Positions 26,027-31,591 of a stretch of 31,591 bases of DNA are shown here, in pieces. The position numbers and the translations under genes were made by a program. Source of the stretch: a virus; the IMG/VR virus record IMGVR_UViG_3300030012_001832, positions 1-31,591 of that record; one strand, given 5' to 3'. Numbering within the stretch: position 1 is the first letter of the stretch; the number at the start of each line of letters is the position of its first letter. The notes beneath the pieces were generated by a model that had not been told where the DNA came from, ran no database searches, and was given only the letters and a program-made list of their open reading frames with translations.

Positions 26027-27907
26027 TTACCATTGAGAAACAAATTTTGGCTTTTGTGCCTTCTTTTTGTATCTTAACTCATCTAAATAGTTCTTATCAT
26101 CCTTTATTTTGCCCTTAATTCGCCCTCTTTCTTCATAATTGTCCCAAATTGTTCTTCTATCACGCTTTTGATAAAGTCTATGCAAAGCTGCATAAGCATA
26201 AACAAGCGTGTCAAGAGCTTCATTTCTTGCTGATGATTTTTTGACCCACTCTCTTATTGGAAATCCTTTGACATATCTTATGACTTGTTTTTCTGCTGTT
26301 AATTGTTTGAAATATTCTTCATCAGCATTTACGTTGAAATGAAGATAACCAGCCCCCATATCGTTATGACGTAATCTTGAAAATAATGTAGTTTTTATTG
26401 TATCTGTACCAACTGTGAACAATTCTGCTCCTTGTTTTATTACTCGCCCTTTCCAATTTAAATCTAATTTTTTACCTTTTCCAATAGGAGGTTTATCTTT
26501 TATACTTGCACCTTTTATAGCTATTACTCCATGTTTTCTTCTATCTCTTGTATAAGCATAAACTTCTGAAGTAAAGTGACCACCAGAGTCAACAGCAATA
26601 ATGTCAGGTTTAAATTCATTTCCAAGTTCATGTCTAAATGGCCTTAGTAAAAGCTGATCTAATTGCTTCCATAGTTCTGATCTTGCTGGGTCGCCATATA
26701 TTTCTTGATGATCTATAAGCCAACCCTCCTCACCACGACCCCAACCCCAAACAGATATTGCAAGTCGGTTGTCTTGTACGTCAACCCCTGCTGTCAGAAC
26801 AACAGCCTTCTCTGGTATCATATTAGACTCATAAGACTCAACACGTTCCATAAGTACATCTGTACCAACTTTAGCTGCATAATCTTCTTCCCATGTTTCG
26901 CCTAAAACTGTATTTACGAAACTTTTTAATCTTGGAGCATCACTTTTTGCTTTTATAAAATCACTAACAATCTCTTCCCAGCTTTTCCAGCCAAGAGGTG
27001 AATATAAACCATTTAAATGAAATCCAGCAGTAATTCCATCAAAAGGAGCAGTCGCTCTCCATTCTCCTTTTGCTAAAAACTCTGGCTTATGTCTTTCTTC
27101 AAATTTTCCTCTGCAATGCTCACACTCATATTTTGCTGTTTTAGGGTCATTATCTTCCCATTTAACTTGTGACCACTGTAAATATTGATATTCTCCACAC
27201 AAAGGACATGGAATATAGAACCTTCGCATATCTGACTCTAAATATTCTTGTTCAATACGACTCATGTCACGAATTGTTGGTGTTGAAGTCATTAATATTT
27301 TTCTTCTGCTAAAAGTCATTGTTCTTTTTTCTGCCAAGCTCACTGCATCTCCTTCATTGTCTATATCAGTTGGAAATGAATCAATCTCATCCATAAAAAT
27401 ATAGCGACAAGGCATTGATCTCAAACCAACTGCACTATTAGCACCTGTTAAAACCATTATTCCGCCAGGAAAATCTTTTGAAAACATAGTGTTCCCGCTA
27501 TCTCTGCTTCGTGAAGGAGCAACTAAATTTGACAAAATTGGTGTATCGCTTATCAATCCTTCAAGTCTTTGACGGCTAAGACGTTTTGCCATTTCTAAGG
27601 TTGGCTGAATCATCAGCATAGAACCAGGTGAATGACTTATTACATAGCCGAGCCAGTTTGAGCCAGCCTCAGTCTTGCCTGTTTGACTTGCAAATTGTAA
27701 AACTACACGTTGAATTGAATTATCAGTAGAAAGGCAATCCATAGGTTCTTTTAAATATGGTGTCCTTTCTGTTCTCCACTTACCCGCTTCTGATGACGAT
27801 TTTGAACTTAGAACTCTATATGTATCTGACCATTGGCTAACAGTAAGAGGTTCTTCAAATTGCAATGAATTTATGCAATCTTTAATTAATGAACTAACTA
27901 TTGTCAA
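26027..27907 (-). CDS. terL: terminase large subunit, lambda gpA-like family
   Basis: 626 residues if begun at TTG 27907, which has GGAGGGG ten bases upstream and matches lambda gpA length (641); the frame extends upstream to TTG 28000, inside the small subunit gene, but that adds no family-like sequence. Motifs: PLTVSQWSDTYRVL near the start, Walker A ASQTGKT (73-79), Walker B YIFMDE (169-174), a zinc-ribbon-like pair C234-x2-C237 and C262-x2-C265, and nuclease acidic residues AGVDVQDN (Asp376), AVDSGG (Asp440) and RNEALDTLVYAYAA (Asp566). It is the packaging motor ATPase and the cos-type endonuclease in its family. It overlaps the small subunit gene by 14 bases. Confidence 0.93.
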   Translation of the reverse strand: MTIVSSLIKDCINSLQFEEPLTVSQWSDTYRVLSSKSSSEAGKWRTERTPYLKEPMDCLSTDNSIQRVVLQFASQTGKTEAGSNWLGYVISHSPGSMLMIQPTLEMAKRLSRQRLEGLISDTPILSNLVAPSRSRDSGNTMFSKDFPGGIMVLTGANSAVGLRSMPCRYIFMDEIDSFPTDIDNEGDAVSLAEKRTMTFSRRKILMTSTPTIRDMSRIEQEYLESDMRRFYIPCPLCGEYQYLQWSQVKWEDNDPKTAKYECEHCRGKFEERHKPEFLAKGEWRATAPFDGITAGFHLNGLYSPLGWKSWEEIVSDFIKAKSDAPRLKSFVNTVLGETWEEDYAAKVGTDVLMERVESYESNMIPEKAVVLTAGVDVQDNRLAISVWGWGRGEEGWLIDHQEIYGDPARSELWKQLDQLLLRPFRHELGNEFKPDIIAVDSGGHFTSEVYAYTRDRRKHGVIAIKGASIKDKPPIGKGKKLDLNWKGRVIKQGAELFTVGTDTIKTTLFSRLRHNDMGAGYLHFNVNADEEYFKQLTAEKQVIRYVKGFPIREWVKKSSARNEALDTLVYAYAALHRLYQKRDRRTIWDNYEERGRIKGKIKDDKNYLDELRYKKKAQKPKFVSQW

Positions 27908-28403
27908 AACTTTTAAGCCCCTCCAAGCATTGACGTATTTCTTCAAGAATAATTGAGTGTATCTTACCTTTATCTGTTTCTGCTGCAAGTAATGGAGCAA
28001 TCCTATCAGGTATTGTTCTCAAGTTATCTCTTACCATTAAATGCAATTTTGCTAATTCTAATTTGACTTCATCAACAGGAACTAATTTTTTTGACCTTTC
28101 TTCAAACTCTAATTTCGTAATTCTTGCGGCATACATTTCTCTAATAGCTCTATTTGCTGCAAGTGATGGAAGTGGTGTTTTATGACCAGACTGCATATTT
28201 AATTTTATTGGCTTTCCCTTTGTTTTTTTATCACTTGTATTTAATACTTTTTCTAAATCTCTATCTGCAAGTTCTGGGTCTATAATCCATTTTCTTCCTA
28301 CTCTTTTGGCACTTGGAATCATGCCCTGCTGTAAATATTTTGTGACCATTGGTGCAGAAACTTGGCGATGTTCTGCGTATGCTTTTGCATCCATTACTGC
28401 CAT
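27894..28403 (-). CDS. terS: terminase small subunit, Nu1-like
   Basis: 169 residues (lambda Nu1 181). The N-terminus (DAKAYAEHRQVSAPMVTKYL, then QQGMIPSAKRVGRKWIIDPE) is a winged helix-turn-helix of the Nu1/MerR-like type with the wing V-G-R-K-W. It is followed by a basic linker and a long helical region (AANRAIREMYAARITKLEFE, then ERSKKLVPVDEV) used for oligomerisation and large-subunit binding. It recognises the packaging start site on the concatemer. The ATG is 2 bases after the HNH gene stop and its end overlaps the large subunit gene. Confidence 0.88.
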   Translation of the reverse strand: MAVMDAKAYAEHRQVSAPMVTKYLQQGMIPSAKRVGRKWIIDPELADRDLEKVLNTSDKKTKGKPIKLNMQSGHKTPLPSLAANRAIREMYAARITKLEFEERSKKLVPVDEVKLELAKLHLMVRDNLRTIPDRIAPLLAAETDKGKIHSIILEEIRQCLEGLKSFDNS

Positions 28404-28405
28404 AG

Positions 28406-28813
28406 TTAACCAATCTCGTCTAATACGGTTTCTGGTTGTTTTTGGTGCATTTCGTAATTAATATCCATGCCTTTATTGTTTAAACTTTCAACTGCAAAAG
28501 TACGAAAGTTTCTTGTATAAAATGGCTCAAACCTTTTTCCATCTCTTACGTCATCTTTATATTTACTCCAAGCAAGTCTATTTCTAAATCTACAATGAAT
28601 CATCATATGACATCTATAGCAAAATGTATATTTACCAATATGATCTCCATAAGGATAGCTGTAATCTTCACTATGATCTTCAACAATACCTTTCGTTTGA
28701 CCACAAGCATCACAAACTTTTCCTTTTGTTCTTCTGCCACTTGCATATTCGCCTTTTAACCAAATAAAAGCATCTGTTCTTTCCTTTGGGCTAAATCCGT
28801 TATAACTTTTCAT
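28406..28813 (-). CDS. HNH-type nuclease-like protein
   Basis: 135 residues. C34-x2-C37 (VCDACGQ), then E45-D46-H47 (IVEDHSEDYSYP), C65-x2-C68-H69 (FCYRCHMMIH) and H73, N78 form a zinc-stabilised beta-beta-alpha HNH arrangement. HNH proteins beside terminase genes are known to aid cos cleavage and packaging in HK97-type phages (established). The C-terminal 55 residues lack recognisable features. The ATG overlaps the acetyltransferase stop (ATGA), and the terminase small subunit follows within 2 bases, which favours a packaging role over a homing endonuclease. Confidence 0.8.
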   Translation of the reverse strand: MKSYNGFSPKERTDAFIWLKGEYASGRRTKGKVCDACGQTKGIVEDHSEDYSYPYGDHIGKYTFCYRCHMMIHCRFRNRLAWSKYKDDVRDGKRFEPFYTRNFRTFAVESLNNKGMDINYEMHQKQPETVLDEIG

Positions 28814-29181
28814 GGTTTTTTTCTTAGTTTTACAGCACCATTAGGAAGTGAACCATATCGGTTAAACCCCTTTTTCTCGTAATATTTTGGATTGTAAGCA
28901 AAAGCTTCAATAAGCGAAAATCTATTTTCACAAAATTGGATTAAGTGTTCTGTAAGTTGCCCTCCAAGACCCATATTTCTATAGTCAGGTAATACATAAA
29001 CCCCTTTTATACGATAGCCAATTTTTACCTTTAATAAGCCCGCAACTCCTAAAATTTCATTATTGTCATTAACTATTCCATACCACCAAGTTTCTTTGCT
29101 TGTTTTTAATGAAACACGTTCTTTTGCTGCTTTTGAATAAAAAGGATATACCTCTTCATAATTAACTGACTTTATTCTCAC
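28810..29181 (-). CDS. GNAT-family acetyltransferase
   Basis: 123 residues from a GTG start at 29181 that has a perfect AAAGGAGGT five bases upstream; it overlaps the IbrB-like gene by 20 bases. GNAT features: the strand WWYGIVNDNNEILGVAGLLK, motif A VYVLPDYRNMGLGGQL with R-x-x-G-x-G for acetyl-CoA, and the C-terminal FAYNPKYYEKKGFNRYG. The substrate is unknown. Phage GNAT-fold proteins include Mu Mom, which modifies adenine, but the typical N-P-x-Y-Y-x-x-x-G-F ending here suits ordinary GNAT enzymes equally well. Its place in an operon with ParB-like and PAPS-reductase-like genes suggests shared work with them (inference). Confidence 0.85.
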   Translation of the reverse strand: MRIKSVNYEEVYPFYSKAAKERVSLKTSKETWWYGIVNDNNEILGVAGLLKVKIGYRIKGVYVLPDYRNMGLGGQLTEHLIQFCENRFSLIEAFAYNPKYYEKKGFNRYGSLPNGAVKLRKKP

Positions 29182-29686
29182 TTTTTACCTCCTTTGGATA
29201 CCACGCTTTGCTATAGCGATAGTTTTTAATATCCCTTACTTCAAAAACACCTTCTTTATAAAGTAAATCTACCTCGTCTTTTGTTGCTCCTATTTCTTTG
29301 CATATTTGTTGAGGGTCAATATTATGCTCATCAATTAGTTCACGAATAATACCGCTCATGCGAAATGCAACGTGGTTTCCTTTTGCTCTGTTAATTCTTA
29401 TTGTCAACATCATTGCTTCTGGCCTCGTTAAAGGTAAAACAACACATGGACATTGACCTTTATATTTTAATTTTAAACTTTTACTTTCTTTTGCCAGTGT
29501 AGCTCTATGAAAACCGTCAATAATAGTACCATCTCCAAGTATTAATACAGGTTGTATCCAACCCTGCTGCAAGATACTAAGTTCTAATAATTTTAATTCT
29601 TGATTTAATACAACATTAGGGTTGTAGTTATTAGAGTTTAATGTTTGAGCATCTCTCCATTCAATTTTATCTATTGGGTCAGTCAT
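29162..29686 (-). CDS. ParB-like (IbrB-type) nuclease/ATPase-fold protein
   Basis: 174 residues from ATG 29686, which overlaps the micro-ORF stop as ATGA and has GGAG six bases upstream; a TTG at 29698 is less likely. The ParB/sulfiredoxin fold is shown by QQGWIQPVLILGDGTIIDGF with G-F-H-R (58-61) then ATLA. The next part (AMMLTIRINRAKGNHVAFRM, then SGIIRELIDEHNIDPQQI and a helix-turn-helix-like KEIGATKDEVDLLYK) matches the IbrB-type pattern I recall, whose partner is the PAPS-reductase-like IbrA encoded just upstream here. Biochemical activity is uncertain: ParB-fold proteins include nucleotide hydrolases and DNases. Confidence 0.82.
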   Translation of the reverse strand: MTDPIDKIEWRDAQTLNSNNYNPNVVLNQELKLLELSILQQGWIQPVLILGDGTIIDGFHRATLAKESKSLKLKYKGQCPCVVLPLTRPEAMMLTIRINRAKGNHVAFRMSGIIRELIDEHNIDPQQICKEIGATKDEVDLLYKEGVFEVRDIKNYRYSKAWYPKEVKSENKVS

Positions 29687-29766
29687 TTCTTGCTCCAAAG
29701 TTTAATAAGGGTTTTAAGTTCAAGAATACGCTTTTTTGCAGCGATAATTTTTTCATTAATAGTCAT
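29683..29766 (-). CDS. 27-residue micro-ORF between IbrA-like and IbrB-like genes
   Basis: ATG at 29766 overlaps the PAPS-reductase-like stop (ATGA), and its TGA at 29685-29683 overlaps the ATG of the IbrB-like gene. The product is MTINEKIIAAKKRILELKTL followed by IKLWSKK: a strongly basic helix with nine lysines or arginines in 27 residues. The end of this micro-ORF contains the GGAG used by the next gene. It could be a functional mini-protein or just a translated bridge that couples the two genes. Double ATGA coupling makes translation likely; function is unknown. Confidence 0.55.
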   Translation of the reverse strand: MTINEKIIAAKKRILELKTLIKLWSKK

Positions 29767-30827
29767 TTACGTTTTGATTTTTGTAATGGCATGAGGGTTT
29801 TTTTGAAACCCCCACTTCTAAAATGTTTAAAAACATAATCCAAAGGATAAGCACCTTTGTCTGCTATTCTTCTACGCATTATTGATTTAAGTTCCTTTTC
29901 TGCTTTTTCTTTTTGATCTTTTGCTTTTATATTTTCTTTAATCCATTGTTTTATACTTTCAAAGCTTTTTCCGTACATTTCAACCTCTTTTTTCATATAT
30001 CTTTGAGCTTCTTTGTAATACCTAGACTGTATAGCCATCTCTGGAAATACATCTAAGCATTGTTCATACAAAGTTGGGTCTATAGTTTTTAACTTATCAA
30101 GATGTTTTGCACTTTCACTTACAAGAGGTGTTGCAACTCGTAGCTGACAACTAGCCCATATTTGTCTGTCATAAATTCTGCAATATGATATTTCCTTCTC
30201 ATAAAAATATTTGAATATATCATTTTCTTCCCAATCAAATAATGGTTTACAAAGACTTACTCTTGGGTTGGAACTTGCATTAATATAGTTGTCATTAAGC
30301 TTATTTACACTAGCTCTAAGCCTAATTAGTGACTCTGAAGCCCTAATACCTGTAATAAAAGCCACTTTACCCTTTAATAACGATCTTTTAGCGATATATT
30401 CATCACAAGTGTATTGATTAAGCACGATATTTTCTCCTTCTCGTAAATTTATTGCATAATCTGGTTTTTTTCTTATATGCTTACGTTTAACATCCCATTG
30501 AACATACTCTTTGACTGTACCAAGAATATATCTGCTGCTAAGTAAGGGTACACAATAATAATCCATATCAACCCAATCGTAATTTCTATAACCTTGAACA
30601 AAATCTATAACAACATTAGGAATAAATTCTTCATCCCTAAAAATTACTTTTACTTTTTTCTTTCCACGCTGTTGAGCAACTTCCCAAACTAAATGTAAAG
30701 TTGCAAGACTATCTTTACCCCCGCTAAAACAAACTGCTATGCTGTCGTGAGTGTCATAAATATGATGCACTCTTTTTTTGGCTTCTTCATAAACATCTGT
30801 ATCTATATAAATTTTTCTTCTAGCCAT
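29763..30827 (-). CDS. PAPS-reductase-like PP-loop protein (IbrA/DUF3440-like)
   Basis: 354 residues from ATG 30827, which has GAGG about six bases upstream; TTG 30839 would add four residues. Motifs: PP-loop SGGKDS (35-40) that binds ATP, GIRASES (160-166), CKPLFDWEENDIF (193-205) as in PAPS reductases, and a C-terminal region (SCQLRVATPL, then TIDPTLYEQCLDVFPEMA) like DUF3440/IbrA proteins. It lacks a classic C-terminal sulfonate-reductase ECG-x-H cysteine motif, so ordinary sulfate reduction is unlikely. DndC in DNA phosphorothioation belongs to the same fold, but no cysteine desulfurase or other Dnd gene is seen here. Adenylation or thiolation of DNA, RNA or a small molecule is inferred only. 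Confidence 0.85.
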   Translation of the reverse strand: MARRKIYIDTDVYEEAKKRVHHIYDTHDSIAVCFSGGKDSLATLHLVWEVAQQRGKKKVKVIFRDEEFIPNVVIDFVQGYRNYDWVDMDYYCVPLLSSRYILGTVKEYVQWDVKRKHIRKKPDYAINLREGENIVLNQYTCDEYIAKRSLLKGKVAFITGIRASESLIRLRASVNKLNDNYINASSNPRVSLCKPLFDWEENDIFKYFYEKEISYCRIYDRQIWASCQLRVATPLVSESAKHLDKLKTIDPTLYEQCLDVFPEMAIQSRYYKEAQRYMKKEVEMYGKSFESIKQWIKENIKAKDQKEKAEKELKSIMRRRIADKGAYPLDYVFKHFRSGGFKKTLMPLQKSKRK

Positions 30828-31464
30828 TTTTTTCCTCAATAAACTGAATTATTTTTTCAGCAATTGTAGATTCATCAGGGTATTCCTCTTTTAGGTCTTT
30901 TAAAAAATCAAACCATTTTTGTTGTTGCTGTTCATCATCAAAAATAATGTTATATGAAATTATAGGTTCACCTAAACCTCTCGTACCTTCACTGTCGTCA
31001 TCTTCATTATTTTCTTCAGCATCAAACTCCATAATTTCTCTAATTTCATCTTCATCCCAACCTAAAACTGATATATCAAAATCTTGCAAATTTAAAGCAA
31101 CGATTTCTTCCTGTAATAAAGCTTCGTTCCAAGTTGCATTTTCAGCTAATTTATTATCAACAAGTATATATGCCTTCTTTTGATTTTCTGTTAAGTGATC
31201 TAAAACGACAACAGGCACTTCGTCTAAAGCTAATTCTCTTGCAGCAGACAGCCGACCATGACCAGCAACAATGCCGTCATTACTATCAACTAAAATAGGA
31301 TTAAGAAAACCAAATTCAACTATTGAAGCTGCTATTTGCCTTACTTGTTCTTTACTATGTTGTCTCGCATTTTTCTCATAAGGCTGTAAGCGTTCAATGC
31401 TCCATAGCTCAATTTTTTGAGCCATTGCAATATTATAATTTTTGTTGATCTTTGTATTCGTCAT
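30820..31464 (-). CDS. ParB-like N-terminal domain protein (methyltransferase-linked type, without methylase)
   Basis: 214 residues from ATG 31464 with AGGA seven bases upstream. Residues ~18-145 hold a full ParB-like domain: NARQHSKEQVRQIAASIVEF, GFLNPILVD, DGIVAGHGRLSAARELAL, VPVVVLDHLTENQKKAYILV with DNKLAENATWNEALL and LGWDEDEI. In many phages this exact type is fused in front of a DNA methyltransferase; here an acidic linker (~145-162) and a short C-terminal domain (PIISYNIIFDDEQQQQKWFD) replace the methylase. It is the first gene of the accessory operon and overlaps the PP-loop gene by 8 bases. DNA binding or nucleotide hydrolysis is likely; exact activity is unknown. Confidence 0.85.
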   Translation of the reverse strand: MTNTKINKNYNIAMAQKIELWSIERLQPYEKNARQHSKEQVRQIAASIVEFGFLNPILVDSNDGIVAGHGRLSAARELALDEVPVVVLDHLTENQKKAYILVDNKLAENATWNEALLQEEIVALNLQDFDISVLGWDEDEIREIMEFDAEENNEDDDSEGTRGLGEPIISYNIIFDDEQQQQKWFDFLKDLKEEYPDESTIAEKIIQFIEEKNG

Positions 31465-31550: not shown

Positions 31551-31565
31551 TAGCGTTTGACGCTA
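31551..31565. repeat. perfect 6-bp inverted repeat upstream of the accessory operon
   Basis: TAGCGT (31551-31556) and ACGCTA (31560-31565) are perfect complements with a three-base centre (TTG). It lies 87 bases upstream of the first gene of the operon in an otherwise AT-rich 127-base region (31465-31591) that holds no convincing ORF. It has no T-tract, so it is more likely an operator-like site or minor hairpin than a terminator. I also see a TATAAC on the minus strand but no well-spaced -35, so no promoter is claimed. Confidence 0.35.
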
Positions 31566-31591
31566 ACTAATTTGCGGGGTCGCCAAACACC

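What the first reader, a model, noticed from the sequence alone, without database searches (positions are those of the whole stretch)
28406..31464. Coupled ParB / IbrA-like / micro-ORF / IbrB-like / GNAT / HNH operon leading into the terminase
Six small genes are locked together by start-stop overlaps (8, 4, 4, 20 and 4 bases) and run within 2 bases into terS. Seen: two different ParB-fold proteins, a PP-loop (SGGKDS) PAPS-reductase-like protein, a GNAT enzyme and an HNH protein. Known: IbrA/IbrB pairs (PAPS-reductase-like plus ParB-like) act as regulators in E. coli; the PP-loop fold also serves DNA phosphorothioation (DndC); the first ParB type is usually joined to DNA methylases. Inference: the operon may chemically mark or sense phage DNA before or during packaging, for self/non-self protection or packaging control. 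No methylase or cysteine desulfurase is present, so it is not a standard modification system.
Basis: partly seen in the sequence, partly recalled or inferred. Interest (0 to 1): 0.78.

Follow-up and report, generated by a model that had tools for sequence, protein, structure and literature searches.

The report
Phage cassette with swappable capping enzyme
Next to the DNA-packaging genes, this virus carries a compact gene set found in many unrelated bacterial viruses, whose last enzyme is either an acetyl-adder or a methyl-adder but never both; it probably writes a changeable chemical mark on viral DNA, and two close cultured relatives that differ in that enzyme make this testable.

Summary
In detail: six coupled minus-strand genes (ParB1, PP-loop, 27-aa micro-ORF, ParB2, GNAT, HNH) end 2 bases before terS. 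They are not a local oddity. In 65 non-redundant loci (collected by the PP-loop protein), ParB2 is present in 65, ParB1 in 60 and HNH in 50. The GNAT position holds either this GNAT family (31) or one methyltransferase-like family (21), never both (10 expected; 0 of 20,000 permutations). GNAT and MTase exchanged at least 16 times on the PP-loop tree, including between Arthrobacter phages Wheelbite and Kovu, whose neighbouring genes are 67-86% identical. A terminase, of several families, lies within 4.5 kb downstream in 38 of 65: common, not universal. The PP-loop protein is neither a PAPS reductase, nor DndC, nor a DUF3440-type IbrA; no cysteine desulfurase was found in the window or in six complete relatives. 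Best explanation (inferred, about 0.5): a DNA-marking module in which the ParB/PP-loop core installs a nucleophilic group on DNA, GNAT or MTase caps it, and HNH is a linked nuclease. The chemistry is unproven; mass spectrometry of Wheelbite versus Kovu virion DNA would decide it.

The parts
30820..31464 (-). ParB1: ParB-fold protein of the type fused to DNA methyltransferases elsewhere; core gene
   Evidence: PF02195 3.2e-9; phrog_620 3.5e-57; phrog_498 6.8e-53; present in 60/65 relatives
29763..30827 (-). PP-loop ATP-pyrophosphatase-like enzyme (annotated 'PAPS reductase' in relatives); core gene
   Evidence: PF01507 2.1e-14, phrog_2302 2.3e-105; SGGKDS, E67, W111, R162, E165, D198-W199 invariant in 77 sequences; AlphaFold pLDDT 94.8, nearest folds FAD synthase PAPS domain, CysH, CysD, TtuA, TilS
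29683..29766 (-). 27-aa micro-ORF, start-stop coupled on both sides; accessory
   Evidence: present in L006 and L030 with conserved peptide ...KKRI.EL..LIKLWSK., absent from L002-L005
29162..29686 (-). ParB2 (IbrB-like): ParB-fold domain with DGFHR motif plus HTH; core gene
   Evidence: phrog_2159 1.3e-64; P4 W10 NxxNPNxV E30 DGxHR TxRxNRAKGxH conserved in 74 sequences; AlphaFold pLDDT 85, nearest ParB CTPases and Noc; 65/65 relatives
28810..29181 (-). GNAT-family acyltransferase in the exchangeable capping position
   Evidence: PF13508 4.9e-11, PF00583 9.3e-11; 31/65 relatives, never with the MTase
28406..28813 (-). HNH (Cys-Cys/His) nuclease-like protein
   Evidence: phrog_2340 endonuclease 7e-4; C34 C37 H47 Y51 C65 C68 H69 H73 invariant in 60/60; 50/65 relatives, between PP-loop and ParB2 in 17
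27894..28403 (-). terminase small subunit, 2 bases after the HNH gene (context)
   Evidence: phrog_57 2.4e-26
26027..28000 (-). terminase large subunit, GpA (lambda-like) type; ORF from the furthest start, true start uncertain (context)
   Evidence: PF05876 3e-95, PF20454 2e-102

Best explanation
A mobile phage DNA-marking cassette with an interchangeable cap. SHOWN: a conserved core (ParB1, PP-loop enzyme, ParB2), usually with HNH and with exactly one of two small transferases (GNAT or an MTase-like protein), recurs in unrelated phages, often just upstream of the terminase. INFERRED: the two ParB-fold NTP-binding proteins load on phage DNA and bring the PP-loop enzyme to it, probably late in infection; the PP-loop enzyme spends ATP (to AMP and PPi) to activate an oxygen of a base (carbonyl), or less likely of the backbone phosphate, so that an amine- or thiol-type group replaces it; GNAT acylates or MTase methylates that group; the DNA is then packaged. 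The HNH protein, perhaps with a ParB partner, cuts DNA without the right mark (host or competitor) or helps the terminase. Frequent exchange of the cap would change the mark's identity and help it escape nucleases that recognise modified DNA.
For: Co-occurrence and exclusivity: 65 loci; GNAT 31, MTase 21, both 0, expected 10, 0/20,000 permutations. Exchange: at least 16 GNAT/MTase changes on the PP-loop tree; Wheelbite (MTase) and Kovu (GNAT) share PP-loop 86%, ParB2 84%, ParB1 77%, TerL 83%, TerS 67% identity but have unrelated slot proteins. Both cap families belong to enzyme classes that transfer a small group to a nucleophile, and they sit on the core's strand in 60/60 cases. HNH is found in 47/52 loci with a cap and 3/13 without, lies between PP-loop and ParB2 in 17, and stays with the cassette when TerL is about 12 kb away (L117). 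ParB1 is the ParB type of phage ParB-DNA-methyltransferase fusions (phrog_498). A 2025 survey found ParB folds fused to methyltransferase, acetyltransferase and HNH domains and binding ATP, CTP or GTP (PMC12704722): the same partner types. DpdB, a ParB-like ATPase, works in deazaguanine insertion into DNA (PMC12839542). Catalytic-type residues are conserved in the PP-loop, ParB2, HNH and MTase proteins. The PP-loop model resembles enzymes that split ATP at the alpha phosphate: FAD synthase, CysD, TtuA, TilS.
Against: No chemical evidence for any DNA modification in these phages was found or could be produced. The DNA MTase signature (DPPY) is absent from the cap MTase, so its substrate could be protein, RNA or a small molecule. 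13/65 loci have no cap, and some distant ones lie far from any terminase. IbrA/IbrB, the best-known relatives, are annotated as co-activators of gene expression. Nucleotide transfer by the PP-loop fold (as in FAD synthase) would give a different product. Late expression is inferred only from position.
Confidence: 0.5

Rival explanations
1. Packaging control: the cassette is a terminase accessory complex. ParB1/ParB2 form an NTP-driven clamp near cos or pac, HNH helps the terminase cut, and the PP-loop and transferase modify a packaging protein.
For: Terminase of several families within 4.5 kb downstream in 38/65; 2-base gap to terS in the window; HNH genes next to terminases aid packaging in other phages (own knowledge, Kala et al. 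2014 PNAS, not read here).
Against: Not universal: cassette about 12 kb from TerL in L117, at the far end of the record in Bacillus 031MP004 without a terminase beside it, no terminase beside it in Rhizobium P11VFA. It sits next to unrelated TerL families, and GNAT/MTase exchange without change of the terminase family.
Confidence: 0.17
2. IbrA/IbrB-like regulator: the PP-loop/ParB2 pair changes transcription (late or host genes), with GNAT or MTase acting on RNA polymerase or ribosomal proteins.
For: PP-loop plus ParB2 is also the make-up of IbrA/IbrB; ParB2 has a ParB-like helical HTH part; phage GNATs such as Rac act on RNA polymerase (PMC7824862).
Against: Window family lacks DUF3440; a regulator does not explain the invariant nuclease-type residues of HNH or the exclusive, often exchanged caps.
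Confidence: 0.13
3. DNA phosphorothioation using host IscS, with the PP-loop protein acting like DndC.
For: Weak match to DndC (NCBIfam 2e-8, PADLOC 9e-8); a similar remark was made for a M. abscessus prophage PAPS-like gene (PMC8092301).
Against: DndC has a Cys-bound 4Fe-4S cluster and a Cys dyad (PMC10853773); only one Cys column (216) is conserved here and it reads S, A or P in 7 of 77. No DndD/DndE in the operon, no cysteine desulfurase.
Confidence: 0.06
4. Anti-competitor or anti-defence system: ParB2 and HNH form a GmrSD-like split nuclease aimed at other phages' modified DNA; PP-loop and cap enzymes mark self or make a signal nucleotide.
For: GmrSD joins a ParB-like NTPase with DGQQR motif to an HNH domain (PMC12373910); ParB2 has DGxHR, and HNH tracks the cap.
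Against: ParB2 does not match GmrSD_N; the only defence-library hits are weak DndC/BrxP/QueC matches and the ParB part of MTase_II; the trio also occurs without HNH.
Confidence: 0.1

Closest known systems
IbrA/IbrB-type pairs in phages (Streptococcus CHPC1148, Faecalibacterium Taranis)
   Same: PP-loop PAPS-like protein next to a ParB-fold protein; distant homologues found by profile
   Different: CHPC1148 IbrA carries DUF3440 (6e-52), absent in the window family; those loci mostly lack ParB1, GNAT/MTase and HNH; in Streptococcus, Lactobacillus and Flavobacterium a SNF2-like helicase lies upstream instead
Cassettes of Arthrobacter Kovu and Laroyevirus (Wheelbite), mycobacteriophage B3 (Obutu), M. 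abscessus prophi79-1, Bacillus 031MP004
   Same: Same core trio; Kovu has the same order ParB1, PP-loop, ParB2, acetyltransferase, terS, terL
   Different: No HNH in Kovu or Wheelbite; MTase instead of GNAT in Wheelbite, prophi79-1 and Bacillus; no cap in Obutu; annotated gene by gene, not described as a system in the papers searched
Dnd/Ssp phosphorothioation (DndC)
   Same: PP-loop ATPase; a ParB-superfamily partner (DndB)
   Different: No Fe-S or dyad cysteines, no DndD/E in the operon, no sulfur donor
Dpd deazaguanine DNA modification (DpdA/DpdB)
   Same: ParB-like NTPase working with a base-modifying enzyme on DNA
   Different: No transglycosylase gene in the operon; PP-loop enzyme instead
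Mu Mom
   Same: Phage GNAT-fold enzyme that acts on DNA (PMC7824862)
   Different: The window GNAT hits general acetyltransferase families, not Mom, and travels with a PP-loop/ParB core

Membership tests
PAPS reductase (CysH) | Catalytic cysteine in a C-terminal ECG(I/L)H motif | tested here: not met
   Only conserved Cys column is C216 in YCxxYD (70/77); no ECGLH in the alignment
DndC phosphorothioation | Cysteines for 4Fe-4S cluster and sulfur dyad | tested here: not met
   DndC score 33.5 against cut-off 290.4
DndC phosphorothioation | Cysteine desulfurase in the element | tested here: not met
   PF00266 absent from window and from 6 complete phages and 2 contigs; 14/14 controls positive
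IbrA/IbrB | PP-loop protein with DUF3440 C-terminal domain | tested here: not met
   PF11922 absent in window PP-loop, present in CHPC1148 IbrA
IbrA/IbrB | Nearby ParB-fold (IbrB-like) partner | tested here: met
   ParB2 in 65/65 loci
ParB CTPase fold | ParB_N fold with NTP-binding P-motif arginine | tested here: met
   ParB2: Foldseek to ParB/Noc 2e-7 to 1e-6, DGxHR with R61 invariant. ParB1: PF02195 above cut-off, but its motif varies (GHGR/GNHT)
ParABS partition | ParA partner next to ParB | tested here: not met
   No ParA among the operon genes
Phage DNA modification system | Modified nucleoside or linkage in virion DNA | not testable with these tools
   needs mass spectrometry
GmrSD type IV restriction | GmrSD_N (DUF262) domain plus HNH in one protein or a ParB/HNH doublet | tested here: not met
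   ParB2 has no GmrSD_N hit; HNH is a separate protein

The most novel reading that the evidence does not exclude
The cassette installs a previously unknown type of DNA hypermodification by a PP-loop/dual-ParB machine, and phages keep changing its chemical identity by exchanging an acyl cap for a methyl cap, with a linked HNH nuclease acting on DNA without the right mark: a phage-borne, chemically variable modification-restriction system tied to packaging.
Probability: 0.3. Interest if true: 0.9.

Novelty: new variant of a known kind. Interest (0 to 1): 0.72.

Why it matters
'PAPS reductase-like' and 'ParB-like' genes are widely annotated but unexplained in phages, including many cultured teaching-programme phages. 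Showing that they form one conserved unit with an exclusive, repeatedly exchanged GNAT or MTase gives a concrete clue to their joint function and a clean experiment: two cultured phages that differ mainly in the cap gene. If DNA marking is confirmed, it adds an enzyme logic to phage DNA hypermodification, and suggests that phages vary their DNA mark much as they vary receptor-binding proteins.

Tried and rejected
First neighbourhood statistics were partly wrong: one TerL seed carried an out-of-frame extension and hid three cap genes; redone with clean seeds and domain coordinates, and TerL calls completed with PHROGs. A genome-end (cos) idea for the shared 14-mer GGTGTTTGGCGACC at the starts of the window's minus strand and of L002 was scanned, but the 14-mer is too common to judge. 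Promoter and terminator scans of the region gave no more than shuffles. A DNA-methylase motif search near the cassettes found only two ParB-DPPY fusions, not part of the cassette. ParA-type partition was rejected (no ParA among the operon genes). Several literature searches for a description of the combined cassette found none, within an open-access library only; Iyer et al. 2013 NAR was not held. A search for published restriction resistance of Flavobacterium relatives found nothing.
Full report
OBSERVATION. The six genes are real and lie as described, on the minus strand, with overlaps of 8, 4, 4, 20 and 4 bases and a 2-base gap to terS. Family searches give ParB1 (phrog_620; also like the ParB part of the ParB-DNA-methyltransferase family phrog_498), a PP-loop protein (phrog_2302, PF01507), ParB2 (phrog_2159), GNAT, a weakly matched HNH, TerS and a GpA-type TerL. 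The window is a 31,591-base IMG/VR record of unknown completeness. Start-stop overlaps are common in phage operons (general knowledge); the interest lies in what the genes are and how they recur.

THE UNIT RECURS. Searches of phage records and viral contigs showed the core trio ParB1, PP-loop, ParB2 in Arthrobacter, Mycobacterium, Bacillus, Rhizobium and many uncultured phages, and in contigs of Nocardia and Rhodoplanes, presumably prophages. After clustering the PP-loop proteins at 85% identity there were 95 loci, of which 65 have enough flank and a close PP-loop protein. With clean seeds and domain coordinates: ParB2 65, ParB1 60, HNH 50, GNAT 31, MTase 21, neither 13, both 0. If the two were independent, 10 loci should have both; none of 20,000 permutations gave so few. 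Because loci were collected by the PP-loop protein, these counts are conditional on it.

THE EXCHANGEABLE POSITION. The GNATs form one family and the MTase-like proteins another (phrog_11826). The MTase family has a SAM-binding-like DL....GLL segment and invariant ARR..PE and EGR motifs but no DPPY, and only sub-threshold Pfam methyltransferase hits. On the PP-loop tree GNAT and MTase change into each other at least 16 times. The closest pair is Wheelbite (methyltransferase) and Kovu (acetyltransferase): ParB1 77%, PP-loop 86%, ParB2 84%, TerS 67%, TerL 83% identical, slot proteins unrelated. All 60 cap genes examined lie on the strand of the core. This is the main new result.

HNH. It keeps two CxxC pairs and three histidines in 60 of 60 relatives. 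It is present in 47 of 52 loci with a cap and 3 of 13 without, lies between PP-loop and ParB2 in 17 loci (the HNH and ParB2 labels there were not affected by the later correction), and stays inside the cassette in L117, where TerL is about 12 kb downstream. So it is not only a packaging-module neighbour, though in 10 of 56 cases it is on the other strand.

TERMINASE. TerL lies within 4.5 kb downstream in 38 of 65: 24 by profile and 14 more identified in the remaining loci through PHROG matches of cluster representatives, from phrog_15, phrog_2-like and phrog_979-like families and the Laroyevirus and Obutu types. In Bacillus 031MP004 and Rhizobium P11VFA no terminase is annotated next to the cassette. 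The adjacency is frequent and crosses TerL families, but it is not a rule.

THE ENZYMES. The PP-loop protein keeps SGGKDS, E67, W111, R115, R162, E165, R169, D198-W199, D203 and Y219 in all 77 sequences. It lacks the PAPS reductase motif and the DndC cysteines: the one frequent cysteine column is replaced in 7 of 77. Its model is confident (pLDDT 94.8) and nearest to the FAD synthase PAPS domain, CysH, CysD, TtuA and TilS, a fold that in most of these enzymes splits ATP between alpha and beta phosphates to activate a phosphate, sulfate or base carbonyl (general knowledge). ParB2 is a ParB N-domain plus HTH with DGxHR in place of the usual ParB box and conserved E30 and TxRxNRAKGxH. ParB1 is more variable (GHGR or GNHT). 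No cysteine desulfurase was found in the window or in six complete phages, which speaks against a self-sufficient sulfur pathway but does not exclude host IscS.

MECHANISM. The pattern of a constant core with one of two small-group transferases suggests that the core makes a nucleophile and the transferase caps it. DNA is the likeliest acceptor: ParB1 is of the DNA-methyltransferase-linked type; ParB-fold proteins elsewhere are fused to methyltransferase, acetyltransferase and HNH domains and bind ATP, CTP or GTP (PMC12704722); DpdB is a ParB-like ATPase in DNA base insertion (PMC12839542); and the cassette often sits at the start of the packaging genes. One distant phage, Microbacterium Leaf, has glycosyltransferase genes, an acetyltransferase and an annotated methyltransferase beside its IbrA-like gene. 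Exchange of caps would make sense if host nucleases read the mark. All steps after gene content and conserved residues are inference.

STANDING AGAINST THE KNOWN. It is not a PAPS reductase, not Dnd, not a DUF3440-type IbrA/IbrB pair, and not ParABS. Published notes on single genes exist (IbrA/IbrB in glacier viruses, PMC4490671; a DndC-like remark on a M. abscessus prophage gene, PMC8092301; PAPS homologues in Thermus phages 'deserve further investigation', PMC11437467). No description of the combined cassette or of the GNAT/MTase exchange was found in the open-access library searched; papers outside it could not be checked.

Noticed in passing
window 29683-29766: The 27-aa coupled micro-ORF is present in L006 and L030 with a conserved helix-like peptide but cleanly absent from the closest relatives L002 and L003, where PP-loop and ParB2 overlap directly (ATGA).
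   Followed up: partly
window 31578-31591 and L002:1-14: The window's minus strand and contig L002 both begin with GGTGTTTGGCGACC just upstream of ParB1; a near copy lies inside L004. Could be a physical genome end (cos) for the GpA-type terminase, or an assembly break.
   Followed up: partly
window 31551-31565: Operator-like palindrome TAGCGTcaaACGCTA upstream of ParB1, not conserved in L002/L003 (CAAACACTAG).
   Followed up: partly
L046:4764-5999, L047:4833-5999, L045:4087-5295, L053:4227-5447: A SNF2-like helicase gene lies directly upstream of the IbrA/IbrB-like pair in Streptococcus, Lactobacillus and Flavobacterium phages: a different conserved partner for the distant branch.
   Followed up: partly
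L048:1408-7158: Microbacterium phage Leaf: two annotated glycosyltransferases, an acetyltransferase, an annotated methyltransferase and an IbrA-like gene in one run, suggesting a sugar-bearing version of the mark.
   Followed up: no
L074:12574-13887, L079:10360-11667: ParB fused to a DPPY-type DNA methyltransferase a few kb downstream of the cassette.
   Followed up: no
L004, L005, L006, L030: Close relatives with the same TerS/TerL lack both GNAT and HNH, so terS follows ParB2 directly; GNAT and HNH may come and go together.
   Followed up: partly
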